DNA from: Rhodocyclaceae bacterium
Lineage (GTDB): Bacteria; Pseudomonadota; Gammaproteobacteria; Burkholderiales; Rhodocyclaceae
Assembly (NCBI GenBank): GCA_004379165.1
Contig: NKXK01000029.1
Coordinates: 124,001 to 188,000 of the forward strand
Direction: 5' to 3'
Length of the DNA stretch: 64,000 nucleotides
The notes beneath the pieces were generated by a model. The model was given only the letters and a program-made list of their open reading frames with translations, was not told where the DNA came from and did no database searches. A program made the position numbers and the translations under genes. Position 1 is the stretch's first letter. The number at the start of each line of letters is the position of its first letter. This document shows, in pieces, positions 5,405 to 58,758 of the stretch.

Positions 5405-5436
5405 GCTGCGGTCAACCCGAAAAAACAACAAAAATC
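5405..5436 (+). repeat. Dispersed GCTGCGGTSAACCYGAAAA repeat, copy A
   Basis: Full core GCTGCGGTCAACCCGAAAA followed by an A-rich half ending AAAATCC. It lies between the cytochrome c gene and the MFS gene and ends just before the MFS ribosome binding site. One of eleven similar non-coding or gene-edge copies in the window. Confidence 0.75.
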
Positions 5437-5450
5437 CCCGGAGAGAGAAC

Positions 5451-6749
5451 ATGCACAACCTGAACGCGGCGCAAAAGCGTCGCCGCTGGCTTGCCCTAGG
5501 CATTGTCGCGCTGGCCTACGTCCTGTCCTTCTTCCAGCGCTTTGCCCCGGCCGGCATTGCGCAGGATCTCGCGGCATCCTTCCAGACCTCGGCGGCTTCG
5601 CTTGGCGTGCTGGCCGCGACCTATTTCTACGTTTACACCGTCATGCAGGTGCCGACCGGCATGCTTGCCGACACTCTCGGGCCGCGGCGCATTCTGGTTC
5701 TTGGCGGTGTCATCGGCGGCATCGGCAGCTTCCTGTTCGGCATGGCGACCTCGCTCGACATGGCGCTGGTTGGCCGCACGCTGATCGGGCTGGGCGTGTC
5801 GGTGACCTTCATCGCCATGCTCAAGCTGATTGCCGTGTGGTTCGAGGAAAACCGCTTCGCGACCCTCGTCGGCGTCTGCATGCTGATCGGCAACCTCGGC
5901 TCGGTACTGGCCGGTGCGCCGCTCTCCGGGCTGGCGCAGGCGACCGGCTGGCGCGGGGTTTTCATCGGTGTCGGCGTTGTCTCGCTCGTGCTCGCGGCGC
6001 TGTGCTGGCTGATCGTCCGCGACCGGCCGGATCAGCCGGACGGCAGCGCCGCAGCGGCGCCTAAATTCGACCGCACGGTGCTCTTCAACAGCCTGCTGTC
6101 GGTCGTCCGCAATCGCGCTACCTGGCCGGCGATTCTGGTCAATACCGGCACCTGCGGCGCCTTCTTCACCTTTGCCGGCCTATGGACGGTGCCTTACCTG
6201 ATGCAGGTGCATGGCATGGAGCGCAGCACGGCGGCCTCGCACCTGTCCTTGTGGTTCGGCGGCTTTGCTGTTGGCTGCCTGCTGCTCGGCACGCTGTCTG
6301 ACCGGCTCGGTCGCCGCAAGCCGGTGATCATCGGCGCCACCCATGTCTTTGCCGGTATCTGGCTGTTGCTGCTCACCGGCGTCACCATGCCGCGCGAGGC
6401 CTCGTATGCGTTGTTCGCGCTGCTCGGTCTGGCGACCGCCGGCTTCAGCCTGACCTGGGCCTGCGCGAAGGAGGTCAATCCACCGATGCTGTCCGGGATG
6501 TCCACCAGCGTCACCAACATGGGCAGTTTTGCCGCGGCGGCGCTGTTGCAGCCGCTGGTTGGCTGGGTGATGGATCAGGGCTGGCATGGCGGGATGGTCG
6601 GTGGTGCGCGTATCTACGATATCGCTGCCTGGCGTGGTGCGCTTTCGGTGATCGTCGCCTGTGCGGTGGCCGGTGCCTTCTGCAGCTGGTGGATCGTCGA
6701 GACGCGTTGCCGGAATATCTGGGCGGATTTGCAGGTGCGCGCAAGCTGA
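5451..6749 (+). CDS. MFS transporter
   Basis: A 432-residue carrier with 12 predicted membrane helices. The loop 2-3 motif is present as TGMLADTLGPRRILVLGG and its symmetry mate as LGTLSDRLGRRKPVIIGA in the second half. The N-terminus RRRWLALGIVALAYVLSFFQRFAPAGIAQDL resembles the hexuronate/phthalate-type organic anion carriers; the substrate is not evident. The start ATG is preceded by GGAGAGAG. The dispersed repeat copy A fills the upstream gap. No co-transcribed enzyme suggests a pathway. Confidence 0.85.
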   Translation: MHNLNAAQKRRRWLALGIVALAYVLSFFQRFAPAGIAQDLAASFQTSAASLGVLAATYFYVYTVMQVPTGMLADTLGPRRILVLGGVIGGIGSFLFGMATSLDMALVGRTLIGLGVSVTFIAMLKLIAVWFEENRFATLVGVCMLIGNLGSVLAGAPLSGLAQATGWRGVFIGVGVVSLVLAALCWLIVRDRPDQPDGSAAAAPKFDRTVLFNSLLSVVRNRATWPAILVNTGTCGAFFTFAGLWTVPYLMQVHGMERSTAASHLSLWFGGFAVGCLLLGTLSDRLGRRKPVIIGATHVFAGIWLLLLTGVTMPREASYALFALLGLATAGFSLTWACAKEVNPPMLSGMSTSVTNMGSFAAAALLQPLVGWVMDQGWHGGMVGGARIYDIAAWRGALSVIVACAVAGAFCSWWIVETRCRNIWADLQVRAS

Positions 6750-6812
6750 CTTGCGCTGGCTGCTGTGGCTTGGTGTAATCTAGTCGGAATCAATTCGCGA
6801 GGTTGAGTCTAG

Positions 6813-9578
6813 ATGTCGGTGCACCTTCCTCGCTGGCAGTCACTGAAGACCCGCGTCACGCTGCTGACGCTGGTGCTTTTCCTGCTGGGCGTCTGGTCTC
6901 TGGCTTTCTACGCCAGCCGGATGTTGCAGAGTGAGATGTCGCAAGTGCTTGGCGAGCAGCAGTTTTCAACGACGCGCATCATCGCCGCACAGATGGATGG
7001 TGAGTTGGTCAGCCGCCTCGAGGCATTGGCCAGTATTGCTCCGCTGATCACCTTGGAGATGATCCGGGATGGCGACGAACTGAATCGATTTCTGGAAAAG
7101 CGCTTGGCGCTTCTCAAGCTGTTCTCTGGCGGGATCCGGATCACCGACGAGAACGCCATCGTCAGGGGTGTGGCACCATTCGTTGCGAGCGGCGTGGGTG
7201 TTGATCTCAGTGAGCGTGATTACATCAAGGCTGCGTTGAAGGAAGGGCGTAGCGCCGTTGGCGAACCAGTGATCGCGCGAGCGTTGAAGGTACCCATCGT
7301 CTCCATTGCGGTGCCGATACGCAATGCTGGTGGAGAGCCTGTCGGTGTCTTGTTCGGCATCATCCGGCTGGGATCGGGCAGTTTTTTTGATACCGTGACC
7401 GACGCGCAGAAAGGTCCGGGCGCAAGTTATCTGGTCATCGCCCCGCAGCATGGCGTGTTCGTTACGGCCAGCGACAAGTCCCGAGTGATGGCCCCGCTGC
7501 CGGCGCCCGGTGTGAACACCATGCACGACCGCTACATGACCGGTTATGAAGGATACGGTGTCGCGGTGAATTCGCGCGGCATCGAGGAATTGTCGGCCGC
7601 CTCCCGCATTCCCTCTGCCGGCTGGTTCCTGGTCAGTGTGCTGCCAACCTCTGTGGCGTTCGCGCCATTGCTGGAAATGCAGCGTAACCTGATCATCGCT
7701 GCCACCGTGCTTTCGGTGCTGGCCGGGCTGCTGGTCTGGTTCACCCTGTCGCGCTTGTTGCGCTGGCATCTGGCGCCCACGCTGGAGACAACCGCGCGGC
7801 TGACATCACTGTCCGAATCGAGCGAGCTGCCAGTTGCCTTGCCGGTGAAGGGCAATGACGAGATTGCCGAACTGCTGACGGCGTTCAATCGCCTGATCCA
7901 GTCCATGGTCGCCCGCGAAGTCGAGCTGCGTGACAGTCAGGCCAATGTCGCGCGCTACGCGGCGGAGCTGGAAAACACGCACGCCCAGCTGCGCGGGCTG
8001 GTCAAGAATCTGCCGGATCTGGTGTGGATGAAGAATGCCGAAGGAGTTTACCTGGCGTGCAACCCGCGTTTTGAGCATTTTGCCGGCCGGAGCGAGGCGG
8101 AGCTGATCGGCCATGCCGATGCCGATTTCATGCCGCCGGAAGCAGCTGAACATTTGCGCGCGGCGCATCGCCTGGCTTTGACGGCGCCCGGAGAGATCGT
8201 CAGCGAGGACTGGATCACCTTTGCCGACGGACATCAGGAGTTGCTGGAAATGACGCGGGTGCCACTGCTCGACGGCAGTGGAACAACGATCGGCGTACTC
8301 GGCATCGGTCACGACATTACCGGGCGCAAGCGTACCGAGGATGAACTGCGCGAACACCGTGACCACCTCGAGGAACTGATTGCCCGGCGCACCGAGGCGC
8401 TGTCGGTGGCCAAGGAGGCGGCCGAGGCAGCCAGCCGGGCAAAGAGTGCCTTCCTCGCCAACATGAGCCACGAAATCCGCACGCCGCTCAACGCCATATC
8501 GGGCATGGCGCACCTGCTGCGCCGCAGCGGGCTCAGTCCCGAACAGAATGTGCGTCTCGACAAACTGGAAGCCGCCGGCACCCATCTGCTGGAGGTCATC
8601 AATGCCGTGCTCGACCTGTCGAAAATCGAGGCCGGCAAGTTTGTTCTGGATACCGTTGATTTTGCGCCGGCCAGCCTGTTTGAAAACGTCCATTCCATGC
8701 TGCTGGCCAAGGCCGAAGCCAAGGGTTTGCAACTCGTCTGTGAGCCGCTGCCGCCCTTGCCGAAGTTGTCGGGGGATCCGACTCGGCTGCAGCAGGCGCT
8801 GCTCAACTATGCCGGCAATGCCATCAAATTTACCGAACAGGGGAGCGTGCGCCTTGGCTTGAAGGTGCTTGACGATGACGCCGACAGCGTTGAGCTGCGC
8901 TTCGAGGTGCGCGACACCGGCATCGGGATTGATTCAGCGACGCTGGCGCGACTGTTCTCGGCCTTCGAGCAGGCGGATAACTCGATTACCCGCAAGTACG
9001 GCGGGACAGGGCTTGGGCTGGCGATCACCCGGCGGCTGGCCCTGGCGATGGGGGGTGACGCCGGCGCCGAGAGCGTCCCGGGGCAGGGCAGCTATTTCTG
9101 GTTCACCGTCCGCCTCGCGCGAGCCGCAGTGCCTGCAGGCGGGATGTTGCAGGGGCAAGTTCCGGGGGGCGAGCAGCAGCTGCGTCAACGCTACGCTGGT
9201 ACCCGCGTGCTGCTGGTCGAGGACGAACCGATCAATCGCGAAATTGGCGAGATGCTGCTGACGGATGCGGGTTTCGACGTCGAGCTGGCCGAGGACGGGC
9301 AGGTGGCGGTGGAGAAATTTGCCGACGAACCTTTCGCTTTGATCCTGATGGACATGCAGATGCCACGCATGGATGGCCTGGCGGCGACGCAGGCGATTCG
9401 CGCCCTGCCCGGCGGCGCTGATGTGCCGATCATCGCGATGACCGCTAATGCCTTCGTTGAGGACCGTGCGCGCTGCCTGGCGGCAGGCATGAATGATTTC
9501 ATCGCCAAGCCGGTGGATCCGGAGGTTTTGTACGAACTGTTGTTGCGGGTGCTGGCGGGAACCGAACCGGCGGCGTAG
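6813..9578 (+). CDS. Hybrid sensor histidine kinase (Cache, HAMP, PAS, HisKA, HATPase, receiver)
   Basis: A 921-residue membrane sensor. One helix near residues 13-32 and a second near 292-313 bracket a periplasmic double-Cache-like domain. A HAMP region, coiled coil, and PAS domain with a PAC-like tail (about residues 395-510; [19 protein letters not shown]) follow. The H-box NMSHEIRTP is near residue 552, then N and G boxes ([25 protein letters not shown]). A receiver domain (about 797-915) carries the acidic residues EDE, the phospho-acceptor in [12 protein letters not shown] and the Lys in IAKP. There is no Hpt domain and no response regulator next door, so the output partner must be elsewhere. 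Confidence 0.9.
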
Positions 9579-9661
9579 TCAGCGGGTGCGGCTGCGCTCC
9601 GGCGCGTCTGTCGCGATATGCGCGGTTGCTCGGCTTTATTAATAAGAGTATGCTAATTTAC

Positions 9662-10663
9662 ATGCGCGCCTACCTGACACCACTACTCGTTTTTTCACTG
9701 TTTTCCGGGTTCACCGCAGCCTACGCTGCCGAGCCTCTGTCGACCCTCGTCGTTCAGCCGCACCGGGTCGATATCGCGTTTCCGGCCGAGTCGCTGGTCG
9801 AGGCTGTGCAGCAGACGACGGTGGCGGCGCAGATTGCCGGGCGCGTGCTGGAAGTGCGTGCCGATGCCGGGCAGCGGGTGGCGAAGGGGGATGTGCTGGT
9901 GCGCATCGATGGTCGCGAGGCAGCAGAAACGGCGCGGGCGGCCGAGGCGCAGTTTGCCAACGCCAAACTCACTTACGAGCGGCAGAAGCAGCTCAAGGAG
10001 CAGAAATTCGTCAGTCAGGCAGCGGTGGACAAGGCCAAGGCCGACTACGATGCGGCTGCCGCCAACCGCTCGGCAGCTGGTGCCAGCCAGAGCCATGCGA
10101 CCATCGTCGCGCCGATTTCCGGCGTGATTGCCCGTCGCCATGCCGAGCTGGGTGATCTGGCGACACCGGGCAAACCGCTGTTCACTCTCTACGAACCGGG
10201 TGCTCTGCGCGTTACCGCCAGCGTGCCGCAATACCGCCTTACCGAGATGCGCGGCGTCAAAACGGCGCGGGTTGAGTTTCCGGAACTGGGCAAGTGGGTC
10301 GATGCGACGGCGGTGCAATTGCTGCCGACGGTCGATCCGGCCACCCATTCCGCACAGGTGCGGGTGACCTTGCCACCGCAGATCGAGGCGACGCCCGGCA
10401 TGTTTGCCCGTGTGCACTTCGTCACCGGCGAGGCCGAGAAGCTGACCGTGCCGGCGGCTGCCGTGCTGCGTCGCGGCGAGGTGGCGGCAGTGTATGTGCA
10501 GTCTGCCGACAACCGCCTTAGCCTCCGCCAGCTGCGTCTTGGCGACGCCGTCGGGCGTGGCGAGATCGAGGTGCTGGCCGGGCTGGCCGCGGGTGACAAG
10601 GTGGTCACCGATCCGGTCAAGGCCGGCATCGCGCTCAAGTCAGCCGCGCCGGCGGGCAAGTAA
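9662..10663 (+). CDS. RND efflux periplasmic adaptor (membrane fusion protein)
   Basis: A HlyD/AcrA-type adaptor of about 333 residues with a signal peptide ending near AAYAAEP. Lipoyl/barrel-sandwich halves are seen around AAQIAGRVLEVRADAGQRVAKGDVLVRIDG and HATIVAPISGVIARRHAELGD, joined by a helical hairpin (AEAQFANAKLTYERQKQLKEQ). Beta-barrel and membrane-proximal domains follow. The start is uncertain: ATG 9650 and ATG 9662 are in frame and neither has a well-spaced Shine-Dalgarno; 9662 gives the better signal peptide. The signal-peptide region overlaps a copy of the dispersed repeat on the other strand. It ends 3 nt before the RND pump gene. Confidence 0.86.
   Translation: MRAYLTPLLVFSLFSGFTAAYAAEPLSTLVVQPHRVDIAFPAESLVEAVQQTTVAAQIAGRVLEVRADAGQRVAKGDVLVRIDGREAAETARAAEAQFANAKLTYERQKQLKEQKFVSQAAVDKAKADYDAAAANRSAAGASQSHATIVAPISGVIARRHAELGDLATPGKPLFTLYEPGALRVTASVPQYRLTEMRGVKTARVEFPELGKWVDATAVQLLPTVDPATHSAQVRVTLPPQIEATPGMFARVHFVTGEAEKLTVPAAAVLRRGEVAAVYVQSADNRLSLRQLRLGDAVGRGEIEVLAGLAAGDKVVTDPVKAGIALKSAAPAGK
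9690..9720 (-). repeat. Dispersed repeat, copy B (inside adaptor signal-peptide region)
   Basis: On the minus strand it reads GCTGCGGTGAACCCGGAAAA and then an A-rich stretch. It shares about 20 identical bases with copy I near 46617. It falls within the codons for the adaptor's signal peptide, where sequence constraint is low. Confidence 0.6.
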
Positions 10664-10666
10664 GTC

Positions 10667-13600
10667 ATGGCGACCGAATCGCAACCGGCAGCCGGCGAGG
10701 GCGGCAAGAGTAGCGCACCGCTCGGCGTTTCCGGGCGCATAGCCGCGGCCTTCCAGGATTCGCGGATGACCCCGTTGCTGGCGCTGGTTGCCTTCCTGCT
10801 CGGCCTGTTTGCGACGCTGGTGACGCCGCGCGAGGAAGAGCCGCAGATCGACGTGACCATGGCCGATGTGCTGGTCGCTTTCCCCGGTGCCTCGGCGCGC
10901 GATGTCGAAAATCTGGTCGCCCGCCCCGGCGAGCAGGTGCTGTCGCGGATGCATGGCGTCGAGCATGTCTATTCGATGTCGCGGCCGGGCATGGCGGTGA
11001 TTACCGTGCAGTTCGATGTCGGTGTGAAGTACAACGACGCCGTGCTGCGTCTGCACGACACCATCCAGTCGCACGCCGACTGGCTGCCGCCCAATCTCGG
11101 CGTCCAGCCGCCGTTGGTCAAGCCACGCGGTATCGACGACGTACCCATCGTTTCGCTGACCTTCTGGACCAAGGACCCGGCGCGCTCGGCCTACGAACTG
11201 CAGCAGGTGGCGCGGGCGGTCGAGATCGAGCTCAAGCGCATCAAGGGCACGCGCGACATTTCCACGCTCGGCGGCCCCGATCACGCCATCCGCGTGCTGC
11301 TCGATGCCGAAAAGATGAATGCCTACGGCGTCACGCCGCAGGATGTGGCGGCGACGCTGAAGCTGTCGAATGCGCTGCAGTCGTCCGGCAGCCTGACTGC
11401 CGGCAACCGCGAACTGCTGGTGCAGACCGGCACCTATCTCGAATCCGCGGCCGATGTCCGCCGGCTGGTCGTTGCCGTGCGCGGTGAGGCCGGGCAGCGG
11501 CGGCCGGTATTCGTCGGCGATGTGGCGCGGGTCGATGACGGCCCGGACCAGCCGAAGCGTTATGCCTGGTTTGGCGATGCCGGCGGCGAGTACCCGGCCG
11601 TGACCATCCAGCTGTCGAAGCAGCCGGGGGTGAATGCCGCCGACGTGGCGACCGCTGCGGTGAACCGGATAAATGCCCTGAAAAACACCGTTATTCCGGA
11701 TGGTGTGGAAGTGACCGTGACGCGCAACTACGGCGAAACGGCGACGGAAAAGGCGCAGAAGCTGATCGGCAAGCTGATCTTCGCCACCGCCTTCGTCGTC
11801 GCGCTGGTCTTCTTCGCGCTCGGCCGGCGCGAGGCGGTGATCGTCGGCATCGCCGTGACGTTGACGCTGGCAGCAACGCTTTTTGCCTCCTGGGCCTGGG
11901 GCTTTACGCTCAACCGCGTGTCGCTGTTCGCGCTGATTTTCTCCATCGGCATCCTGGTCGATGACGCCATCGTGGTGGTCGAGAACATCCATCGCTGGCA
12001 GGGACTGTATCCGGAAAAAACGCTGCTCGAGATCATCCCCGGGGCCGTGGACGAAGTTGGCGGGCCGACCATCCTGGCGACGCTGACCGTCATTGCGGCC
12101 TTGCTGCCGATGGCCTTTGTCACCGGCCTGATGGGGCCGTACATGAGCCCGATTCCGATCAATGCGTCGATGGGCATGGCGATTTCGCTGGCCGTTGCCT
12201 TCGTCGTCACGCCCTGGCTGGCGGCGAAGCTGATGAAGGCGCATGGCGGCGGGCATGGCGCACCGGCGGTGTCGAAGCTGGATGCCAGGCTCGACAGCAC
12301 CTTCCGCAAGCTGCTGTCGCCCTTCCTTGATCCGGTCAGGGGCGGCGCCGCCCGCATCAAGCTGGCGATTGCCGTGCTCGTGCTGATCTTCGGCTCGGTG
12401 GCGCTGGCCTATGTCCAGCTCGTCGTTCTCAAGATGCTGCCTTTCGACAACAAGAGCGAATTCCAGGTCGTGCTCGACATGCCGGTCGGCACGCCGGTTG
12501 AGGAAACCGCGCGCGTGCTGCACGACATCGGCGCCGAACTGGCGACCGTGCCGGACGTGGTCAATTACCAAGCCTATGCAGGGACGGCCAGCCCGATCAA
12601 CTTCAACGGCCTGGTGCGCCAGTACTATCTGCGCGCAGCGCCGGAAAAGGGCGATATTCAGGTCAATCTCGCCGACAAACAGCATCGTTCAAAGAAGAGC
12701 CACGAGATCGCGGTTTCGGTGCGTGAGCGCATCGAAGCCATCGGTAAGCGTAACGGCGGTGTCGCCAAGGTCGTCGAAGTGCCACCGGGGCCGCCGGTGA
12801 TGTCGCCCATCGTTGCCGAAATCTACGGCCCGGATTACGCCGGCCAGATGGCCGTCGGCAAGCAGGTACGCGATGCCTTTGCGGCGACACCGGATATCGT
12901 TGCCATCGACGACTACATCGACGCCGACGCCAAAAAGCTGGTGCTGCACGTGCAGCAGAGCAAGGCAGCGCTGCTCGGCGTGGCGCAGAGCGACATCGTC
13001 GAGGTGGTAGGCATGGGCCTGGCGGGGATGGACGTGACGCCGGCGCGCAATACAGATTCCAAGTTCGAGATTCCGGTGCGCATCGTGCTGCCGGCCGAAA
13101 AACAGTCTTCGCTCGATGCGCTGCTCAAGCTGCGGGTACGTTCCCGCGAGGGGCAACTGGTGCCGGTGTCGGAACTGGTCGAGGTGCGCGAGTCGGTGCG
13201 CGAAAAGGCGATCTACCACAAGGACCTGCTGCCGGTGGTCTATGTCGTCGGCGACATGGGTGGCAAGCTCGATTCGCCGCTCTACGGCATGTTCGACATC
13301 CGCTCGAAGATCAACGGCATGGAACTCCAGCAGGGCGGCACGCTCGGCGAATGGTTCATCCGCCAGCCGGACGACCCCTATGCCGGCTACAGCGTCAAGT
13401 GGGATGGCGAATGGAAGGTGACCTACGAAACCTTCCGCGACATGGGCGCCGCCTACGCTGTTGGCCTGATCCTGATCTACCTGCTGGTGGTCGCGCATTT
13501 CGGCAGCTATCTGGTGCCGCTGATCATCATGGCGCCGATTCCGCTGACCATCATCGGCGTCATGCCCGGACATGCCTTGTTCGGTGCGCAATTCACCGCC

Positions 13601-14145: not shown

Positions 14146-16173
<2,028 letters not shown>

Positions 16174-49087: not shown

Positions 49088-51019
49088 ATGCCTTATCTCA
49101 AACTCAACGACGCCTGCCTGGCCTACGGCCACGTGCCGCTTCTCGATCACGCCGATTTCCAGCTCGATTCGGGCGAACGGGTGGCGCTGATCGGCCGCAA
49201 CGGTACCGGCAAATCTTCGCTGCTGGCAGCAATGGCCGCCGGCACCGGCAAAGGGCGACTGGACGATGGCGAGGTCTGGGTCCAGCCGGGCATTCGTGTC
49301 GGTTACGTACCGCAGGAGCCGCCCTTCGACCCGGAGATGAGTGTTTTCCAGGCGGTGGTTTCCGGCATGGGTGAAACCTCGGCGATGCTGGCGGAGTACC
49401 ACAATATTTCGCACCGTCTGGGCGAGGGAGCTGGCGACCATGATGCCCTGCTGGCGCGCATGGATGCCCTGCAGCACGAACTTGAGGCGCGCGGTGCCTG
49501 GGCCTACGAGGCGCAGGCCGAGCGGGTGATTGCCCGCTTCAGCCTGGATCCGGAAGCGCGCGTTGGCAGCCTGTCCGGCGGACAGAAGAAGCGGCTGGCG
49601 CTGGCGCAGGCGCTGGCTGTTGCACCCGAGGTGCTGTTGCTCGACGAGCCGACCAACCACCTCGACATCGCCGCCATTGAATGGCTGGAGACGATGCTGA
49701 TCGAGTCGGGCGTGACTCTGCTCTTCATCACTCATGACCGTTCCTTCCTCGATCGCGTCTGCACGCGCATTGTCGAGCTGGACCGCGGCAAACTGGCCAG
49801 CTATCCCGGCAGTTTTACGCAGTATCAACAGCGCAAGGAGGCGCAACTGCACGAGGAAGCGCTGGCCAACGCCCGGGCCGACAAGTTACTGAAGGAGGAG
49901 GAGGTCTGGATTCGCAAGGGCGTCGAGGCGCGGCGGACGCGGGCGGTGTTCCGCGTGCAGCGGCTGGATCGGTTGCGTGCCGAGCGGCAGGCACGGCGCG
50001 ACCGCATGGGCAAGGTCAATCTGCAGCTGGACGCCGGCGACAAGAGCGGCAAGCTGGTGGCCGAACTGGAGAACGTCAGCAAGTCCTACGGTGAACGCCA
50101 AATTGTTGCCAATTTCAGCAGTCGCATTCAGCGCGGTGACAAGATTGGCCTGATCGGTCCCAACGGCGCCGGCAAGACGACCTTGCTGCGGCTGATCCTC
50201 GGTGAGTTGCAGCCAGACGCTGGCAAAGTGCGGCAGGGGACGAAAATGGAAATTGCCTATTTCGACCAGTTCCGCACCCAGCTCAATCCCGATTCCTCGC
50301 TCGCCGACATCATCTCGCCGGGCTCGGACTGGGTCGAGATCGGCGGCGCACGCAAACACGTGATTGGCTATCTCGAAGACTTCCTGTTTGCCCCGGAGCG
50401 GGCGCGTTCGCCGGTCAGTTCGCTGTCCGGCGGCGAACGCAACCGGCTGTTGCTGGCACGCTTGTTTGCCAAGCCCGCCAACGTTCTGGTGCTCGACGAG
50501 CCGACCAATGACCTCGATATCGAGACGCTGGAACTGCTCGAACAGCTGCTGCAGGACTACGAGGGTACCTTGTTCCTTGTCAGCCATGACCGGACCTTCC
50601 TCGACAACGTCGTGACCCAGACCATCGCGGCGGAAGGTGCGGGTGCATGGAAGGAGTACGCGGGCGGTTACAGCGATTGGGCGAGCTATCAGGCGACGCT
50701 GGCTAAAGCGACCGAGAAGGCGAAGGCGGCCACGCCGCCCGTCAGCAAGGCGGCCAAACCGGTGGAGACGAACAAGCCGAAGGCCCAAAAGCTGTCATGG
50801 AAGGAGCAGCGGGAGCTGGAAGCGCTGCCGGAGAAAATCGCAGGCCTTGAGGCCGAGCAGGCCACGCTGACCCGTCGGCTTGAGGATCCGGCGCTATACC
50901 AGACCGATCCGCAGGCCGCACAACAGGCCGCCGAGCGTCTGGCGGCCATCGACGACGAATTGCTGGAACTGCTGGAGCGCTGGGAGTCGCTGGAGTCGCG
51001 TCAGGGCGGGGCGGGCTGA
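49088..51019 (+). CDS. uup: ABC-F family ATPase
   Basis: A 643-residue soluble protein with two ABC domains. Walker A boxes are GRNGTGKSS (about residues 36-44) and GPNGAGKTT (about 358-366); signatures are LSGGQKKRLALA and LSGGERNRLLLA; Walker B boxes are LLLDEPTNHLD and LVLDEPTNDLD. The linker is Arg-rich (RRTRAVFRVQRLDRLRAERQARRDR), and the C-terminal end (SWKEQRELEALPEKIAGLEAEQATL) is a coiled coil typical of Uup. ABC-F proteins act on the ribosome; Uup also affects transposon excision. Confidence 0.93.
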   Translation: MPYLKLNDACLAYGHVPLLDHADFQLDSGERVALIGRNGTGKSSLLAAMAAGTGKGRLDDGEVWVQPGIRVGYVPQEPPFDPEMSVFQAVVSGMGETSAMLAEYHNISHRLGEGAGDHDALLARMDALQHELEARGAWAYEAQAERVIARFSLDPEARVGSLSGGQKKRLALAQALAVAPEVLLLDEPTNHLDIAAIEWLETMLIESGVTLLFITHDRSFLDRVCTRIVELDRGKLASYPGSFTQYQQRKEAQLHEEALANARADKLLKEEEVWIRKGVEARRTRAVFRVQRLDRLRAERQARRDRMGKVNLQLDAGDKSGKLVAELENVSKSYGERQIVANFSSRIQRGDKIGLIGPNGAGKTTLLRLILGELQPDAGKVRQGTKMEIAYFDQFRTQLNPDSSLADIISPGSDWVEIGGARKHVIGYLEDFLFAPERARSPVSSLSGGERNRLLLARLFAKPANVLVLDEPTNDLDIETLELLEQLLQDYEGTLFLVSHDRTFLDNVVTQTIAAEGAGAWKEYAGGYSDWASYQATLAKATEKAKAATPPVSKAAKPVETNKPKAQKLSWKEQRELEALPEKIAGLEAEQATLTRRLEDPALYQTDPQAAQQAAERLAAIDDELLELLERWESLESRQGGAG

Positions 51020-51038
51020 AGCAGCCTCGGCCGGTAAT

Positions 51039-52021: not shown

Positions 52022-52663
52022 ATGCGCTACGCTATCGTTCCGGTCACTCCTTTCGAGCAGAACTGCACCATTTTCTGGTGCGAAACCACCCGTCAGGCGG
52101 CGGTGATCGACCCCGGTGGCGATATCGACCGCATCGAACGCAAGCTCGCCGCCGAAGGGCTGACGCTGGCCAAGATTCTTGTCACGCATGGTCATATCGA
52201 CCACGCCGGCGCCGTTGGCGCGCTGGCCGCCAAGACCGGCGTGCCGATCGAAGGGCCGCATGAGGACGATCGTTTCTGGATCGATGGCATGACCCAGCAG
52301 AGCAAGATGTTCGGTTTTCCGAACGTCCAGGGCTTTACGCCGGATCGCTGGCTGCAGGCTGGCGACAAGATCCGCTTTGGCGAGGTCGAACTCGACGTGT
52401 TGCATTGCCCCGGGCATACGCCGGGGCATTTGGTCTTCTTCCATGCGCCGAGCAAGCTGGCGCAGGTGGGCGACGTGCTGTTCCAGGGGTCGATCGGGCG
52501 TACTGATTTCCCGCGTGGCGATCACGACACGCTGATCCGTTCGATCAAGCAAACCCTGTTTCCCCTGGGCGATGATGTCGAATTCATCCCTGGGCACGGG
52601 CCGATGTCCGACTTCGGCGAGGAACGTCGCTATAATCCCTTTCTAAGCGGACGTTTCGGCTAA
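52022..52663 (+). CDS. Metallo-beta-lactamase fold hydrolase (glyoxalase II-like)
   Basis: A 213-residue enzyme. The zinc motif THGHIDHAGAVGALA is near residues 59-73; further ligands are HCPGHTPGHLVFFH, VGDVLFQGSIGRTDFPRGD and the terminal IPGHGP. The short length and the FPRGDHDTLIRSI segment match the YcbL-like subgroup with glyoxalase II activity in some species, but persulfide dioxygenase and other members share the fold. Start ATG 52022. It is convergent with the second HDOD gene. Confidence 0.87.
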   Translation: MRYAIVPVTPFEQNCTIFWCETTRQAAVIDPGGDIDRIERKLAAEGLTLAKILVTHGHIDHAGAVGALAAKTGVPIEGPHEDDRFWIDGMTQQSKMFGFPNVQGFTPDRWLQAGDKIRFGEVELDVLHCPGHTPGHLVFFHAPSKLAQVGDVLFQGSIGRTDFPRGDHDTLIRSIKQTLFPLGDDVEFIPGHGPMSDFGEERRYNPFLSGRFG

Positions 52664-53818
52664 TCAGCTACCGACGTGAATACGCGCAGCCCAGGACAAT
52701 GCTTGGCACTGCGCCTGCAAGAAGTCGGTCGGGCTTATCCCGAGGTCGCCGAGCTTTTGTGCCGCCTTGTCCAGCCGCCCTTGAGCAGCTTTCTTGACGG
52801 CCAGTAGCAAGCAGCCAAGGTCACCGTCGTGATCCGATAAGGCGCCATTGACGGCGCTGGACAGTGGGAGCTGCTGCAGGATCCCCGACAGCGGCATTTT
52901 GAGCAGGACGTCAAGCAATGAAAAGGTGCCAGTCATGAAAGCAGCATCAGCGGCATTGTCGAGCGTTGCCGCTTGCGGTACATGGCTGATCAGTAACTCG
53001 AGCAGGCGCCCGCGGGCCGCGGCGAATTGCAACAAGGGATTGGGGTGGGCGCCGTTGTTAGGGTCGGCATAAACCAGCAATTGCAGCCAGCGTTGCAACT
53101 GGCGGCGCCCCAACAGATTGATGGCCTGGGCGAAACTGGTAATCGGGCTGCGTGGTGCGACGGCCGCCGAATTGACGAGACGAAGCAGGCTGTAGGAGAG
53201 CTTTGACTCTTCCTTGAAAACAGCTTCCAGTGCCGGCGTGTCGGCGCCTTCGCTGATCAGGGCGAGCAGTCGCAGTAACTTGACGCGCGTTATATCGGCT
53301 TTTTCGCCTTCGGTGGCACGTGTCAGCAGATATTCGGCGGAGGTCAGTGTCGCGCCATTCTCGATCAGCCAGTGCCGGTCATTCTGGCTCTGAACACTGG
53401 TGCCGATAATAGCGGTTCGGCTGGCCTGACCGATCAGCGTGTAAGGCGGCAGTGATCGCGCATGACTGGCGGCGATGAGCAGAAAATCCCAGGTGCCGGT
53501 GGCCGGCAGTTTGACATCGGCCGCCGCGATCAGACCGACGCGGGTCCGTTGCTGCCGAAGTGCGGCTTCCAGCGCCGCATGCTGCGCCTCCGGATGCGCC
53601 GGGAACAGCCAGACATGGCGGGCATCGCCGCCCAGGCCTTCGGCAGCCGGAAAAATCCAGGGGTGGCGCTGGTCGAATTCGGTCAGGCAATCGCCGGATA
53701 ACAGTTGGGCGACAATTTCACTGTCCTGGCAGTCAGGCACAAATTCGGCTCGGTAGCCCGCCCAAGCATCGTCGGCGCTGAGCAGCGGTTGTACAAAAAG
53801 ATATCCGTTCTGGGACAT
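52664..53818 (-). CDS. HDOD domain protein with divergent N-terminal EAL-like region
   Basis: A 384-residue protein. The start at ATG 53818 (MSQNGYLFVQPLLSADDAWAGYRAEF) resembles the first strand of EAL proteins but the EVL/EAL catalytic residues are absent. The C-terminal HDOD part is clear: LLRLLALISEGADTPALEAVFKEESKLSYSLLRLVNSAAVAPRSPITSFAQAINLLGRRQLQRWLQLLVY. This is the YuxH-like architecture. The stop is adjacent to that of the MBL gene. It diverges from the alkA-like gene. Confidence 0.85.
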   Translation of the reverse strand: MSQNGYLFVQPLLSADDAWAGYRAEFVPDCQDSEIVAQLLSGDCLTEFDQRHPWIFPAAEGLGGDARHVWLFPAHPEAQHAALEAALRQQRTRVGLIAAADVKLPATGTWDFLLIAASHARSLPPYTLIGQASRTAIIGTSVQSQNDRHWLIENGATLTSAEYLLTRATEGEKADITRVKLLRLLALISEGADTPALEAVFKEESKLSYSLLRLVNSAAVAPRSPITSFAQAINLLGRRQLQRWLQLLVYADPNNGAHPNPLLQFAAARGRLLELLISHVPQAATLDNAADAAFMTGTFSLLDVLLKMPLSGILQQLPLSSAVNGALSDHDGDLGCLLLAVKKAAQGRLDKAAQKLGDLGISPTDFLQAQCQALSWAARIHVGS

Positions 53819-53884
53819 GAGCGTTTTTTTCGACAATTTCGGATGATGTTAGCAAACTTCGCGACAGTGTGTCGCAGCCAAGCA

Positions 53885-53917
53885 CGATTTCAGCGGGTTT
53901 TTCAGGTTTACCGCAGC
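53885..53917 (-). repeat. Dispersed repeat, copy J
   Basis: Minus strand reads TTGCTGCGGTAAACCTGAAAA then CCCGCTGAAATCG. It lies between the divergent HDOD and glycosylase genes, with GGTAAACC as the only A variant at the variable position. Confidence 0.7.
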
Positions 53918-53936
53918 AATCGGCTACACTCATCGA

Positions 53937-54554
53937 ATGGTTCCCGACTACTGGCAGCAGGCGGCTGCCGAGCTTTCCGCCAACGATCCGGTGATGGCGG
54001 CACTGGTCCGGCAGTCTGCGGGACTGTCGCTGTTTTCGCGTGGCGACGCCTTTGCGACGCTGGCCCGCTCGATTGTCGGTCAGCAGATTTCGGTCAAGGC
54101 AGCCGATTCGGTCTGGGCCCGGGTGATGACCTGTTTGCCGGTTTTGTCGCCGGTCGGCGTACTGGCCCGTTCGGCGGAGGAGCTTGCCGCCTGCGGCCTT
54201 TCGCGGCGCAAGGTCGAGTATCTGCTCGATCTGGCGCAGCATTTTGAGTCCGGGCGGCTTGATCCAAGTGGCTGGGGGCGGCGGGACGACGAAACGCTGA
54301 TCAAGGAATTGTCGGCGGTGCGTGGCATTGGCCGGTGGACGGCAGAGATGTTCCTGATCTTCAACCAGCTGCGACCGGATGTCTATCCGCTCGACGATAT
54401 CGGCCTGCAGCGGGCCGTGTTCATGCACTACTTTGGCGGCGAAAGGCAGACTCGTGCCGCCTTGGCGGCCTTTGGCGAACGCTGGCGGCCCTGGCGTTCG
54501 GTGGCGACCTGGTATCTCTGGCGCAGCCTCGATCCGGTGCCCGTCGCGTACTGA
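53937..54554 (+). CDS. DNA-3-methyladenine glycosylase II (AlkA-type, HhH-GPD)
   Basis: A 205-residue DNA repair glycosylase. The HhH-GPD motif is [38 protein letters not shown], with the catalytic Asp in PLDDIG. The N-terminal part ([25 protein letters not shown]) is the family helical core. Shorter than E. coli AlkA (no N-terminal TBP-like domain) as is usual in this clade. It removes alkylated purines. Followed 59 nt later by accA. Confidence 0.9.
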
Positions 54555-54613
54555 TCCGCAGGCGGTTTGCCTTTCAGGTAAAATGCGGGCCAACCAATGC
54601 AACCGAGCTGTCC

Positions 54614-55582
54614 ATGAAAACCAGTTTCCTCGACTTCGAGCAATCCATCGCTGACCTCGAAGCAAAGATTGAAGAGCTCCGCTTCGTGCAGGATGATTCC
54701 GCCGTCGATATCTCCGAAGAGATCGCACGCCTCGAAACCAAGGGCGCGCAGCTAACGAAGGAAATCTACGCCAAGCTGACACCCTGGCAGATTTCGCAGG
54801 TCGCCCGTCATCCGCAGCGTCCATATACCCTGGACTACATCCAGCACATCTTCACCGACTTTGAAGAGCTGCACGGCGACCGTGCCTTTGCCGACGACCG
54901 CGCCATCGTCGGCGGCCTGGCCCGTTTCAACGGCCAGCCGGTGGTCGTCATCGGTCACCAGAAGGGGCGCGACACCAAGGAGAAGATTTATCGCAACTTC
55001 GGCATGCCGCGTCCGGAAGGCTATCGCAAGGCCTTGCGCCTGATGAAACTGGCCGAGAAATTCGGTCTGCCGGTGATGACTTTCGTCGACACCCCGGGCG
55101 CCTATCCCGGCATCGATGCCGAGGAACGTGGCCAGTCTGAAGCCATCGGTCGCAACCTCTACGTGATGGCCGAACTGAAGGTGCCGGTGATTGTCACCAT
55201 CATCGGCGAGGGTGGCTCCGGCGGGGCGCTGGCGATTGCCGTCGGCGATGTCCTGCAGATGCTGCAATACTCGACCTATTCGGTGATTTCGCCCGAGGGC
55301 TGTGCTTCCATTCTGTGGAAGAGTGCCGAGCGTGCTCCTGACGCCGCCGAAACCATGGGCATTACGGCGCAGCGCCTGAAGACGCTGGGCCTGGTGGATA
55401 AGGTCGTAAACGAGCCCCTTGGCGGTGCTCACCGTGACCATGCGGCGATGGCGCAAAACCTGAAGAAGGCCCTGCAGGATGCGCTGAAAGAGGTGTCCGG
55501 GCTGTCCACCAGCGAATTGCTGGAACAGCGCTACGAGCGGCTGATGAGCTATGGCCGCTTCAAGGAACAAGCCGCTTCCTGA
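54614..55582 (+). CDS. accA: Acetyl-CoA carboxylase carboxyltransferase subunit alpha
   Basis: A 322-residue subunit starting at ATG 54614 ([24 protein letters not shown]). Typical AccA blocks: [83 protein letters not shown] and [16 protein letters not shown]. It works with AccD to make malonyl-CoA. The stop lies 32 nt inside tilS, so the two are translationally linked. Confidence 0.96.
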
Positions 55583-56525
55583 TCTGCCGGGGCGGGTCGG
55601 CGCCTTTCTCGCTGCCCGCCTGCCTGCCAACGCCCGGTTGTGTGTCGGGCTCTCCGGCGGTTGCGACTCCATCGTACTCTTGCGCTTGCTCGCCTGCAGC
55701 CCGTGGGCCGGTCAGCTCTCGGCGATGCACGTCCATCACGGGCTGTCGCCAAATGCTGATGACTGGGCCCAATTCTGTGCCGGCGTCTGCGGTGAACTTG
55801 AAATTCCGCTCAAAATCGCCCGGGTGACGGTGCCGAACCCTGCCCCGGAGGGGCTTGAGGCCGCCGCGCGTTCGGTGCGCCACGCGGCGCTGGCCGGCTG
55901 CGGCGCCGATGTGCTGTTGCTGGCGCATCATCGCGGTGACCAGGCCGAGACGGTATTGTTTAATCTGTTGCGCGGTTCGGGCGTTACAGGTGCGGCCGGA
56001 ATTCCTCAAGTGCGGGTCGGATCCGGCCTGACGCTATTGCGCCCTATGCTCGACGTCTCGCGTGATCAAATCGAGGCCCATGCGATGGCGCAGGGCTGGC
56101 GCTGGATCGATGACGAAAGCAACGCCGACCAGCGCCACAGCCGAAACTATCTACGCCACACTGCGCTACCGGTCCTCAGGCAGCGTTTTCCGGCGGCCGA
56201 GGCGATGCTGGCGCAGGCCGCCGGCCACTTCGCCGAGGCGGATGCGCTGCTCGGCGATCTGGCGGAGATCGACTGGCAAGCCGTGGCCGGCGATGGTGAC
56301 TGCGCCCCGGTGAAGGCCTTGCGCACGCTGCCGCTGTCTCGTCTCAAGAATCTTCTGCGCTGGCGTTTGCGCGTGCTGGGCTGGCGTTCGCCGGTAGCCG
56401 CCCGTCTCGACGAGTTCGCCCGCCAGTTGCTGTCGGCGGCGCCGGACCGGCATCCGTCGCTGAGTCTGCCGGATGGGCAGATGCGGGTTGCCGGTCGCCA
56501 TCTCCATTGGTTCCCGATGACGTAA
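55551..56525 (+). CDS. tilS: tRNA(Ile)-lysidine synthase, short form
   Basis: A 324-residue enzyme that modifies C34 of tRNA-Ile(CAT). The PP-loop is [11 protein letters not shown] (near residue 36), then [13 protein letters not shown] and [21 protein letters not shown]. It lacks most of the C-terminal domain of the E. coli enzyme (432 residues), as in other short-form TilS. The ATG lies 32 nt inside accA. It contains a sequence like the dispersed repeat (55785-55818), which here encodes a normal family segment. Confidence 0.92.
55785..55818 (+). repeat. Dispersed-repeat-like sequence inside tilS
   Basis: GTCTGCGGTGAACTTGAAA then TTCCGCTCAAAATCG matches the repeat, but it encodes [13 protein letters not shown], which fits the TilS family at this position. 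Coincidence or shared origin cannot be told. Confidence 0.35.
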
Positions 56526-56603
56526 CAATCTGTTACCCGTCGCCTATCGCCGAAGGCAGGGCATCAGTTACAATCACAGGATTATTTTCTTGAAATCAAG
56601 GCC

Positions 56604-57482
56604 ATGATTACTGGATCCATTGTCGCCATCGTCACGCCCATGCATGAGGACGGCAGCCTCGACCTAAATTCCCTGCGCAATCTCGTGGATTTCCACGTGC
56701 GCGAGGGCACCGACGCCATCGTGATTGTCGGCACCACCGGCGAATCGCCGACGGTCAATGTCGAGGAGCATTGTGAACTGATCAAGGTCACGGTCGATCA
56801 CGCGGCTGGCCGCATTCCGGTCATCGCCGGCACCGGTGCCAACTCGACGGCAGAAGCCATCGAACTGACCGAATTTGCCAGGAAGGCCGGCGCCGACATG
56901 GCCCTGTCGGTCGTTCCGTATTACAACAAGCCGACGCAGGAAGGCCTCTATCGCCATTTCGAGGCGATCGCCGAAGCCGTCGAACTGCCGGTGCTGCTTT
57001 ACAACGTACCGGGGCGCACTGTCGCTGATATGTCCAACGACACCATCCTGCGCCTGGCGCAGGTGCCAGGTATCGTCGGCGTCAAGGACGCGACCGGCAA
57101 CTTCGATCGCGCCTGCGACCTGATCGCCCGCGCACCGAAGGATTTCGCCCTGTACAGCGGCGATGACATGACCTGCGTCGCGACCATCATGATGGGCTTC
57201 CACGGCAACATCTCGGTGACCGCCAACGTGGCACCGCGCCTGATGCACGAAATGTGCGTCGCGGCCGCAGCCGGCAACGTTGCCAAGGCCCGGGAAATCC
57301 ACTTCAAGCTGCTCGGCCTTCATCGCGACCTGTTCTGCGAAGCGAATCCGATTCCGGTCAAGTGGGCGGTGCATCAGCTGGGCCTGATGCCCAACGGCAT
57401 CCGTCTGCCGCTGACGACGCTGTCCGAAGGCAATCAGGGGCGTGTTCTCGCCGCCCTTCGCCAAGCCGGCCTGGTCGGCTAA
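56604..57482 (+). CDS. dapA: 4-hydroxy-tetrahydrodipicolinate synthase
   Basis: A 292-residue lysine/diaminopimelate biosynthesis enzyme. [19 protein letters not shown] opens the TIM barrel; [14 protein letters not shown] holds the pyruvate-binding Thr pair; [14 protein letters not shown] has the catalytic Tyr, and [13 protein letters not shown] the Schiff-base Lys. Condenses pyruvate and aspartate semialdehyde. It is followed by bamC after 14 nt, the usual order. Confidence 0.96.
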
Positions 57483-57496
57483 GGGAGTTGTTCAAG

Positions 57497-58624
57497 ATGA
57501 ATCGTCGGCTTTCCGGCCTCACCCTCTCGCTGCTGGCGGTTTCACTGGCGGCCTGCAGCATGCTTCCCGATTCCCGCAAGATCGAATACAAATCCGCCGG
57601 CAAGGTGCAGACGCTGGAAGTGCCGCCTGACTTGTCGCAGGTCGCCCGTGATGAGCGCTTCCTGGTGCCGGATGCCGCTGGCAAGGGGAGTGCAACCTTC
57701 TCTGCATACTCCGCCGACCGCACGCCGGCCGCGCAGGCGCAGAACTCCGTGGTGCTGCCGCAGATCGATAAGGTCCGTGTCGAGCGTTCGGGTACGCAGC
57801 GCTGGCTGGTCGTCGCGGCGCCGGCTGACAAGCTGTGGGATTCGGTCAAGGATTTCTGGCAGGAAACCGGCTTCATCATCAACGTCGAGCGGCCCGATGC
57901 CGGCTTGATGGAAACCGACTGGGCCGAGAACCGGGCAAAGATTCCGGACGACATCATCCGCAATACCATCGGCAAGCTGCTGGATTCGCTCTACTCGACG
58001 GGCGAGCGCGACAAGTTCCGCACCCGCTTCGAGCCGGGCAGCGAACCGGGTACGACCGATATTTTCGTCAGCCACCGTGGCATGGAAGAGGTCTATACCT
58101 CGTCAGCCAAGGATGACACCCGCTGGCAGCCGCGTCCGCCGGACCCCGAACTGGAAGCGGAAATGCTACGGCGTCTGATGGTACGGCTGGGGTCCGATGA
58201 CAAGCGTGCCGAAGCCGCGCTGGCGACAACCAAGGTCGAGCCGCGGGCCAAGCTGGCAAAATCCGATGATGGTTCCGGGACGGTGGAAGTCATGGAGCGT
58301 TTCGACCGCGCATGGCGCCGTGTTGGCCTAGCTCTGGATCGAGTGGGGTTCACTGTTGAAGACCGGGATCGTTCGCGCGGATTGTATTTCGTCCGCTATG
58401 TCGATCCGGAGATCGACAACAAGTCGAAAAAGGATGATGGCATACTCTCCAAGCTGGCTTTCTGGAAGAGTGCTCCGCCGGTCAGTTCCAAGGTTCAATA
58501 CCGCATCTATGTCGCCGATGCCGGCCCTCAGAGCACGATTCAGGTGCTGACGCCGGAGGGCGGTGCTGACAAGTCGGAGACGGCGAAGAAGATTCTGGCG
58601 CTGCTGCAACAGCAGTTGCAGTAA
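57497..58624 (+). CDS. bamC: Outer membrane assembly lipoprotein
   Basis: A 375-residue lipoprotein of the BAM complex. Start ATG 57497 with AAGGGAG upstream. The lipobox is SLAACSM near residue 19. IEYKSAGKVQTLEVPPDLS is the conserved N-terminal peptide that packs on BamD. Two helix-grip domains follow (WLVVAAPADKLWDSVKDFWQETGF, and ERFDRAWRRVGLALDRVGF). A terminator lies 20 nt downstream. Confidence 0.92.
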   Translation: MNRRLSGLTLSLLAVSLAACSMLPDSRKIEYKSAGKVQTLEVPPDLSQVARDERFLVPDAAGKGSATFSAYSADRTPAAQAQNSVVLPQIDKVRVERSGTQRWLVVAAPADKLWDSVKDFWQETGFIINVERPDAGLMETDWAENRAKIPDDIIRNTIGKLLDSLYSTGERDKFRTRFEPGSEPGTTDIFVSHRGMEEVYTSSAKDDTRWQPRPPDPELEAEMLRRLMVRLGSDDKRAEAALATTKVEPRAKLAKSDDGSGTVEVMERFDRAWRRVGLALDRVGFTVEDRDRSRGLYFVRYVDPEIDNKSKKDDGILSKLAFWKSAPPVSSKVQYRIYVADAGPQSTIQVLTPEGGADKSETAKKILALLQQQLQ

Positions 58625-58643
58625 GACCGCACAGTCCAAAAAA

Positions 58644-58677
58644 AGCCCGGTGGTGCGAAAGCACTACCGGGCTTTTT
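58644..58677 (+). terminator. bamC terminator
   Basis: AGCCCGGTGGTGC-GAAA-GCACTACCGGGCT, a 13-bp stem (one G-U) with GAAA tetraloop and TTTT. Confidence 0.92.
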
Positions 58678-58724
58678 GCATTGACCTGGCTGAATTTCTC
58701 CATTTCTAGCCATTGTGCTCTGGT

Positions 58725-58758
58725 GGCTACGGTCAACCTGAAAACGCGGCCAAAAACA
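58725..58758 (+). repeat. Dispersed repeat, copy L
   Basis: GGCTACGGTCAACCTGAAAA then CGCGGCCAAAAACA. In minus-strand reading it follows the terminator of the Met-rich lipoprotein gene. Confidence 0.75.

What the first reader, a model, noticed from the sequence alone, without database searches (positions are those of the whole stretch)
5405..58758. A dispersed ~32-bp repeat, core GCTGCGGTSAACCYGAAAA, in eleven copies
Copies at 5405, 9690(-), 19183, 22191, 23102, 27563(-), 33488(-), 36113, 46617, 53885(-) and 58725 share the core GCTGCGGT[C/G/A]AACC[T/C]GAAAA and an A-rich right half like GCCAAAATCG. Nine are intergenic and two (33488, 9690) overlap a gene start or signal peptide. The central GGTNNACC part is a near-dyad. 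In minus-core orientation it often follows a gene end or terminator (copies D, E, F, H, L). I know of no described element with this sequence. It could be a protein-binding site, a 3'-end RNA element or a MITE-like solo repeat.
Basis: seen in the sequence. Interest (0 to 1): 0.85.

Follow-up and report, generated by a model that had tools for sequence, protein, structure and literature searches.

The report
Probable DNA-uptake tag in Dechloromonas
The repeat is a ~35-base tag, scattered hundreds of times in this environmental bacterium and spelled differently in sister species, that looks like the 'self' label some bacteria require before swallowing free DNA; such labels are known from two other bacterial families, and uptake itself remains to be tested here.

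Summary
The repeat is real, and far larger than reported. All eleven copies are confirmed; a profile finds 17 in the window and 222 in 864 kb of the genome (0 in the reversed control), about 790 extrapolated. The unit is one-directional: core KCTGCGGTSAACC, then two A/T tracts one helical turn apart, about 35 bp. 123 of 222 copies lie inside genes, in both orientations; intergenic copies favour convergent 3' ends and avoid divergent promoters. Spacing is more even than chance. Against best homologues, 42 of 51 genic cases show no gap, so sites mostly arose by substitution, not insertion. Sister species carry shifted cores (CTGCGGTCGAC; CACGGTCRAC) with the same A/T tracts. The architecture has 14-409 copies in 44 of 76 genomes of the genus (Dechloromonas) and at most 3 per genome outside it. 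This is the signature of a DNA uptake signal sequence like those of Pasteurellaceae and Neisseriaceae. The genome has ComEC, DprA, a ComEA-type protein and ComP-family and FimT-like pilins. Eight literature searches found no uptake sequence reported in this family. Against: uptake is untested, no receptor is identified, gaps at sites exceed expectation, and no tested gene tracks the motif. A MITE, RNA element or terminator fits poorly.

The parts
1888..1923 (+). uptake-sequence-like site, inside gene 978-2675(+)
   Evidence: profile score 32.4 bits
3470..3505 (-). uptake-sequence-like site, intergenic
   Evidence: profile score 32.1 bits
   Evidence: 47.8 bits; Pfam
   Evidence: 42.7 bits; Pfam
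11652..11687 (+). weak site inside an AcrB-type transporter gene
   Evidence: 19.3 bits; Pfam
15180..15215 (+). weak site inside gene 14146-16173(-)
   Evidence: 22.3 bits; best homologues in three relatives (46-47% identity, perhaps paralogues) align without a gap (s31)
   Evidence: 44.5 bits; Pfam
   Evidence: 38.1 bits; Pfam
   Evidence: 42.6 bits; Pfam
   Evidence: 44.0 bits; Pfam
   Evidence: 26.0 bits; Pfam
   Evidence: 52.4 bits; Pfam
   Evidence: 43.5 bits
50083..50118 (+). weak site inside gene 49088-51019(+)
   Evidence: 19.0 bits
   Evidence: 40.5 bits
55784..55819 (+). uptake-sequence-like site, intergenic
   Evidence: 36.6 bits
   Evidence: 38.2 bits

Best explanation
The repeat is the uptake signal sequence of a naturally competent Dechloromonas: a ~35-bp tag (KCTGCGGTSAACCYGRAAAA, about 6 bp, then AAAAT) bound at the cell surface by a type IV pilus-associated protein, so that tagged, i.e. 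conspecific, DNA is preferentially taken up and recombined. Any allele that by chance mutates closer to the preferred sequence is taken up more often and spreads by recombination. That bias accumulates the motif over the whole chromosome wherever selection permits: gene ends, linkers, weakly constrained codons. Shown here: abundance, anatomy, placement, even spacing, mostly substitution origin, species-specific spellings, near-restriction to one genus among the genomes sampled, and presence of competence genes. Inferred: that the cells are competent, that the tag raises uptake, and that a minor pilin is the receptor.
For: (1) The top-ranked over-represented 10- and 12-mers in 864 kb of the genome are parts of this motif. 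(2) 222 profile sites above 14 bits against 0 in the reversed control, both strands (118/104). (3) 123 of 222 sites in genes, 67 same and 56 opposite orientation; 93 of 123 fall in one frame class. (4) Per-kb density 0.77 intergenic against 0.16 genic; 1.48 between convergent and 0.24 between divergent genes. (5) Spacing more even than category-preserving random placement: CV 0.82 against 1.04 +/- 0.07, 0 of 2000 simulations as low. (6) 42 of 51 best-homologue alignments have no gap at the site; at some the relative has another spelling in the same place, e.g. s108 and s113 in G187. (7) Shifted cores in G003, G102 and G187 with A/T tracts at about +15..18 and +25..29: CTGCGGTGAAC 62.5/Mb in G000 but 0 in G003 and G187; CACGGTCGAC 225/Mb in G187 but 11.6 in G000. 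(8) Generic architecture at 14-409 copies in 44 of 76 genomes of the genus, reversed control at most 2 per genome; outside it at most 3 per genome in 283 family genomes and at most 2 in 393 order genomes. (9) G000 has ComEC, DprA, a ComEA-type protein, a ComP_DUS-family pilin and beside it a GspH/FimT-like pilin. (10) The same traits are listed for USS: core plus two 3' A/T segments, no orientation bias, regular spacing, preference for non-coding DNA with many coding copies, clade-specific spellings, origin by substitution (PMC1626085, passages).
Against: No uptake or transformation data exist here. Gaps at genic sites exceed expectation (9 of 51 against 2.6, or 3.35 when flank identity is matched), though none is a flush 33-36 bp insertion; the USS paper reports gaps in 24% (115/474) of its alignments. 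Over-representation leads only for 10- and 12-mers: among 9-mers TGCGGTCAA is sixth and no motif piece is in the top 25 8-mers. The ComP_DUS-family pilin is also present in motif-poor genomes. Density (about 1 per 3-4 kb) is lower than the roughly one per kb cited for USS and DUS. The consensus is looser: 116 perfect against 131 single-mismatch 11-mer cores. The proteins sampled from the three longest site-free stretches are mostly ordinary rather than foreign. There is a weak strand polarity, 127 of 219 on the G-rich strand, p = 0.02. Profiles of the four spellings cross-match strongly at 14 bits, so dialect separation is partial. A low background exists outside the genus: 34 hits against 10 in the reversed control over 283 family genomes (my tally).
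Confidence: 0.8

Rival explanations
1. Binding sites of an intracellular chromosome-organising protein (nucleoid-associated, segregation or division-site protein, SlmA/Noc/KOPS-like; these names are recalled), with the A tracts bending the DNA.
For: Hundreds of dispersed, evenly spaced copies; a dyad-like GGTNNACC core, fully palindromic in some G187 copies; A tracts one turn apart; weak polarity 127 of 219.
Against: The strong polarity expected of KOPS or Chi sites (recalled) is absent. The motif carries about 31 bits (my sum of the rounded values, inflated by the score threshold) where about 13 would suffice to locate it in its own genome. Sister species carry different cores and 32 of 76 genomes in the genus have 13 or fewer copies, unlike a conserved housekeeping site. 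The A/T half is one-sided.
Confidence: 0.12
2. MITE-like or REP-like transposed solo repeat.
For: High copy number, lineage-limited, denser between genes; 9 of 51 homologue alignments have gaps at the site against about 3 expected; three of these gaps are about 10-14 residues long.
Against: 42 of 51 alignments have no gap and none has a flush 33-36 bp insertion. 123 of 222 copies lie inside genes. Conservation stops at the motif's edges; target-site duplications were not searched for. Graded single-mismatch copies abound and the spelling differs between species at the same site.
Confidence: 0.03
3. 3'-end RNA element or intrinsic terminator.
For: Enriched near 3' ends and between convergent genes.
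Against: No orientation bias (58 same, 53 opposite). More than half lie inside genes on either strand. By eye the unit has only the short dyad (I did not fold it), and only five pairs of sites lie within 150 bp of each other among 222. No Rfam match other than tRNA in the window at gathering scores.
Confidence: 0.02

Closest known systems
Uptake signal sequence (USS) of Pasteurellaceae (Hin-type AAGTGCGGT, Apl-type ACAAGCGGT)
   Same: A short core (this one shares TGCGGTCAA with the extended Hin form AAAGTGCGGTCAATTTT given in PMC12616744) followed on its 3' side by two A/T segments about one helical turn apart; hundreds of copies on both strands, regular spacing, coding and non-coding copies, clade-specific spellings, substitution origin.
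   Different: A beta-proteobacterial genus, not Pasteurellaceae; core extended to GGTSAACC, with ACGG instead of GCGG in the G187 spelling; first strong A tract about 8 bp after the core T rather than just after it; about 1 copy per 3-4 kb instead of about 1 per kb; uptake not tested.
DNA uptake sequence (DUS) of Neisseriaceae (GCCGTCTGAA and dialects), receptor ComP
   Same: Many dispersed copies, dialects by species, a beta-proteobacterial host (taxonomy recalled); a ComP_DUS-family pilin is encoded.
   Different: Sequence unrelated (GCCGTCTGAA at 1.2/Mb in the G000 sample); DUS has no flanking A/T motifs; the pilin is not specific to motif-rich genomes.
REP/MITE intergenic repeats (features recalled)
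   Same: Dispersed, lineage-specific, denser between genes.
   Different: No insertion footprint in most alignments, more than half the copies in genes.

Membership tests
Pasteurellaceae-type uptake signal sequence | Core followed by two 3' A/T segments one turn apart | tested here: met
   core-to-segment offset differs from Hin USS
Pasteurellaceae-type uptake signal sequence | Among the most over-represented 8-, 9- and 10-mers of the genome | tested here: inconclusive
   top for 10- and 12-mers; sixth among 9-mers and not in the top 25 8-mers
Pasteurellaceae-type uptake signal sequence | No orientation bias; coding and non-coding copies; more regular than random spacing | tested here: met
   strands 118/104, spacing; densities; weak polarity to the G-rich strand, 127 of 219
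Pasteurellaceae-type uptake signal sequence | Arises by substitution, not insertion | tested here: met
   42 of 51 homologue alignments without gap, with the gap excess stated
Pasteurellaceae-type uptake signal sequence | More perfect than singly mismatched cores | tested here: not met
   116 perfect, 131 single-mismatch for CTGCGGTSAAC; an 11-mer, so not the same test as the 9-mer
Pasteurellaceae-type uptake signal sequence | Core AAGTGCGGT or ACAAGCGGT | tested here: not met
   3.5 and 5.8 per Mb in the G000 sample
Pasteurellaceae-type uptake signal sequence | Raises uptake of DNA by competent cells | not testable with these tools
   needs an uptake assay
Neisseriaceae DUS | GCCGTCTGAA-type 10-12-mer | tested here: not met
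   GCCGTCTGAA 1.2 per Mb in the G000 sample; the other dialects were not counted
Neisseriaceae DUS | ComP receptor | tested here: inconclusive
   PF16732 member in G000 and in 70 of 76 genomes, motif-rich and motif-poor alike; its model ranks other pilins above ComP
MITE / transposed repeat | Clean insertion relative to homologues | tested here: not met
MITE / transposed repeat | Terminal inverted repeats and target-site duplication | not tested
   only edge conservation was seen
KOPS/Chi-type polar site | Strong strand polarity along the replichore | tested here: not met
   127 of 219 with the local G-rich strand; GC skew stood in for replichore
Known Rfam RNA element | Match at gathering score | tested here: not met
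   only two tRNAs in the window

The most novel reading that the evidence does not exclude
A third, independently evolved lineage of self-DNA uptake tags, in an environmental genus (known, from recall, for denitrification and perchlorate reduction), converging on the Haemophilus design (GCGGT-type core plus phased A tracts). It has several species spellings and is scarce or absent in many members of the genus, so it would act as a pre-mating barrier among these bacteria and offer a natural series for finding a USS-type receptor.
Probability: 0.72. Interest if true: 0.92.

Novelty: new variant of a known kind. Interest (0 to 1): 0.86.

Why it matters
Passages of a 2006 paper and a 2016 review place uptake sequences in two families, Pasteurellaceae and Neisseriaceae (PMC1626085, PMC5031613). 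A third case with a USS-like architecture in another class would show that such tags evolve repeatedly. It would help separate what is essential (core plus phased A/T tracts) from accident, and give 44 motif-rich and 32 motif-poor genomes in one genus for mapping the receptor by comparison. It would also mean that gene exchange in these environmental bacteria is steered by self-tags.

Tried and rejected
Terminator/RNA element: rejected on symmetric orientation and genic copies. MITE: judged unlikely on homologue alignments. KOPS/Chi: rejected on weak polarity. Foreign-island test: I expected the largest site-free stretches to be acquired DNA. I scanned 10 proteins, only part of the genes in the three longest gaps (18.1, 17.4 and 15.9 kb): they are mostly ordinary (MatE, adenylate cyclase, ATP synthase-type, isocitrate lyase, EAL/GGDEF, HDOD and others), 1 of 10 without a Pfam match, so no support. 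Receptor: I tested whether the G000 ComP_DUS-family pilin tracks the motif; relatives at 51-59% identity occur in motif-rich (G213, G024, G187, G211, G102) and motif-poor genomes (G006, G206, G190, G194), so it does not. Its AlphaFold model (mean pLDDT 83.7) matches pilins in general, ComP fifth. comEC integrity: among genomes of one or two contigs it is broken in 2 of 4 motif-poor and 0 of 10 motif-rich (classified by me; p = 0.066); intermediate G152, intact, was left out and would make it 0 of 11. Suggestive only; motif-rich draft G002 also has a split comEC. De novo search for another tag in motif-poor G190 and G225 and intermediate G152 (first 200 kb each): no dominant k-mer.

Limits. The homologue test used 51 pairs from 37 of the 123 genic sites (my count), because relatives were sampled in part; matches with E above 1e-20, under 45% identity or not spanning the site were dropped, and some are best homologues, not proven orthologues. 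The G003 stretches were chosen on contigs already known to carry hits, so its density is biased upward. The thresholds of 12 and 14 bits were set by looking at the control. Motif counts per genome are not corrected for size or completeness. Gene calls are from my own codon-usage script, not a standard caller. Literature: eight searches, of which I saw listings, showed no paper on uptake sequences or on this repeat in Dechloromonas or Rhodocyclaceae; only open-licence papers are held and listings are capped.
Full report
WHERE IT IS. The window lies in a 3.06-Mb, 44-contig genome, G000. A scan of named genomes with the near-full motif hit eight stretches from four assemblies, all labelled Dechloromonas or uncultured Rhodocyclaceae. 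So the genus is Dechloromonas in the GTDB sense (inference). The ten window genes that I scanned are ordinary: a nitrite/sulphite reductase-type protein, a Rieske protein, a sensor kinase and response regulator, an RND pump, an MFS transporter and others.

THE OBSERVATION. All eleven copies are real. 15 matches with up to 3 mismatches against 0.11 expected; 405 genome-wide with up to 2 mismatches against 1 for the reversed pattern. In 864 kb (window) a profile built from near-perfect copies finds 222 sites above 14 bits, none in the reversed sequence, 17 of them in the window. That extrapolates to about 790 per genome. The top-ranked over-represented 10- and 12-mers of the sample are pieces of the motif; among 9-mers its best piece is sixth and among 8-mers none is in the top 25.

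ANATOMY. Positions counted from the C of CTGCGGT: strongly conserved CTGCGGT-S-AAC at 0-10, weaker C-Y-G, A tract at 14-18, a weak GGC at 21-23, A/T tract AAAAT at 25-29, then weak CGG. Nothing more than 5 bases upstream is conserved. The two A/T tracts are about 10-11 bp apart, one helical turn, and lie only on the 3' side, so the unit has a direction despite the GGTNNACC near-dyad. Summing the rounded per-position values gives about 31 bits; about 13 would suffice to pick roughly 1,000 sites out of this genome. Such an excess is expected of a tag that must stand out against all environmental DNA (inference; the score threshold inflates the sum).

PLACEMENT. 123 of 222 sites lie inside genes (67 same, 56 opposite), 88 between genes, 11 on edges. 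Density is 0.77 per kb between genes and 0.16 inside; by spacer type (spacers of 36 bp or more) 1.48 (convergent), 0.86 (tandem) and 0.24 (divergent) per kb. Many intergenic copies sit close to stop codons, without orientation preference (58/53). 93 of 123 genic copies share one frame class, often read as AAVN- or -LTAA. Spacing is more even than chance: CV 0.82 against 1.04 +/- 0.07 and 12% of intervals under 1 kb against 26%, with 0 of 2000 category-preserving simulations as extreme. Polarity along the local G-rich strand is weak, 127 of 219 (p = 0.02).

ORIGIN. For genic sites I aligned the G000 protein with its best homologue in sampled relatives. Of 51 usable pairs (37 of 123 sites) 42 have no gap in the codons that carry the site. 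In some the relative has its own spelling at the same place, for instance G187 ATTCACGGTCAACCCGAAGAATTGCC against G000 GGCTGCGGTCAACCCGAAAATTCGCC (s108), and s113. Against this, 9 gaps exceed the 2.6-3.4 expected from other windows of the same alignments; sites lie in less conserved stretches (53% identity against 75%), and no gap is a flush 33-36 bp insertion. The published USS analysis found gaps in 24% of its alignments and still concluded substitution (PMC1626085, passage).

DIALECTS AND DISTRIBUTION. De novo k-mers differ by species: G000 CTGCGGT[C/G]AACC; G102 GCTGCGGTCGAC; G003 CTGCGGTCAACC and CCACGGTCAACCGG; G187 CACGGTCGACC and CACGGTCAACC, some copies fully palindromic. The A/T tracts stay in register in all four, weaker in G102 and G187. 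Exact counts per Mb in G000, G003, G102, G187: CTGCGGTGAAC 62.5, 0, 7.5, 0; CACGGTCGAC 11.6, 20.9, 10.0, 225. Profiles cross-match at 14 bits (170-635 hits per Mb among these four; 40-70 in G152, 5-45 in G190, 0-40 in G225), so these are overlapping dialects. A spelling-neutral pattern (CGGTSRAC, 5 bases, AAA, 7 bases, AAWW) is found 14-409 times in 44 of 76 genomes of the genus, the window's included, and 0-13 times in 32; the reversed control reaches at most 2. Outside the genus 24 of 283 family genomes have any, at most 3 each, 34 hits in all against 10 in the control (my tally), a slight excess; 32 of 393 order genomes have any, at most 2 each, no more than their control; eight family genomes are common to both calls. 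With the G000 spelling (up to 1 mismatch) 36 of 146 family genomes outside the genus have 1-3 copies, 41 hits against 6 in the control (my tally), and 0 of 16 genomes of other families have any. So the high-copy state is confined to the genus in these samples, with a thin background in the family. Motif-poor G190 and G225 and the intermediate G152 show no other dominant oligomer in 200 kb each.

MACHINERY. G000 has ComEC, DprA, a ComEA-type helix-hairpin-helix protein over the curated cut-off, and a minor-pilin cluster behind a gene that looks like glmU by eye: a ComP_DUS-family pilin, a GspH/FimT-like pilin and a third prepilin-like protein without a Pfam match. Across the genus ComEC is seen in 71, DprA in 75, ComEA-type in 75 (67 over its cut-off) and ComP_DUS in 70 of 76 genomes. 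ComP_DUS is in 0 of 14 control genomes; the other three also occur in most or many of the controls. All also occur in motif-poor genomes, so they show capacity, not specificity. The ComP_DUS-family pilin model resembles pilins broadly: PilA4, PilV, a Shewanella pilin, PilE, with ComP fifth.

MECHANISM. The best account is an uptake sequence: surface recognition of the tag by a pilus-linked protein, preferred import, recombination, and accumulation of the tag by this bias. Abundance, anatomy, placement, spacing, origin and distribution are shown. Competence, preference and receptor are inferred.

COMPARISON. The 2006 USS paper lists the same traits for USS and DUS: no orientation bias, more regular than random distribution, preference for non-coding DNA with many coding copies, family-level spread, and for USS two A/T motifs 3' of the core (PMC1626085 passages). 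A 2025 paper gives the extended Hin form AAAGTGCGGTCAATTTT (PMC12616744 passages); the Dechloromonas core shares TGCGGTCAA with it, which I read as convergence because the host is beta-proteobacterial and the G187 spelling lacks GCGG. It is not filed as a Pasteurellaceae USS or a Neisseria DUS: their cores are rare here. It works like a USS. Papers seen in passages: PMC12616744, PMC1626085, PMC5031613, PMC3630211; others were seen as search listings with abstract starts only. Eight searches listed no uptake sequence outside the two families or in this genus; the library holds only open-licence papers.

Noticed in passing
G225:C1:2218607-2251879, G002:C33:109525-144033, G018:C8:1085724-1086371: comEC is split at about the same profile position (26-28) in G225 and G002 (the short piece of G002 is below the cut-off), with about 33 kb between the two pieces, and the match begins there in G018: possibly a mobile element with an integration site inside comEC.
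   Followed up: no
G225:C1:1-200000 and G152:C1:1-200000: 10-mer CACGTGAAAC is over-represented (8 against 0.08 expected, 5 against 0.13), perhaps a regulatory site or another repeat.
   Followed up: no
G187:C1:1-200000 and G225:C1:1-200000: 12-mers of an AT-rich repeat (AAAGTAGCCAAA in G187, CAAAAGAAAGTA in G225) occur 6 and 5 times where about 0.01 or less is expected.
   Followed up: no
G187 sample; G000 sample: Part of the G187 sites carry a palindromic core (ACGGTCGACCGT, 40/Mb), as if two opposed tags share one centre; in G000 three opposed pairs are offset by exactly 15 bp.
   Followed up: partly
window 58760-64000 and on to about 74.6 kb of the joined stretch: A 15.9-kb stretch without sites and with lower G+C (0.559) begins near the window's end; the six genes scanned there look ordinary.
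   Followed up: partly
L214, L216, L213, L212, L209 against L157, L158, L164: ComP_DUS-family pilins of the genus show two C-terminal types, one ending in CW...SC and one in a short CW tail; G000-type relatives occur in motif-rich and motif-poor genomes alike.
   Followed up: partly
G152: Intermediate case: 29 generic sites (8 forward, 21 reverse) and no dominant k-mer in its first 200 kb, possibly a decaying or recently acquired tag set.
   Followed up: no
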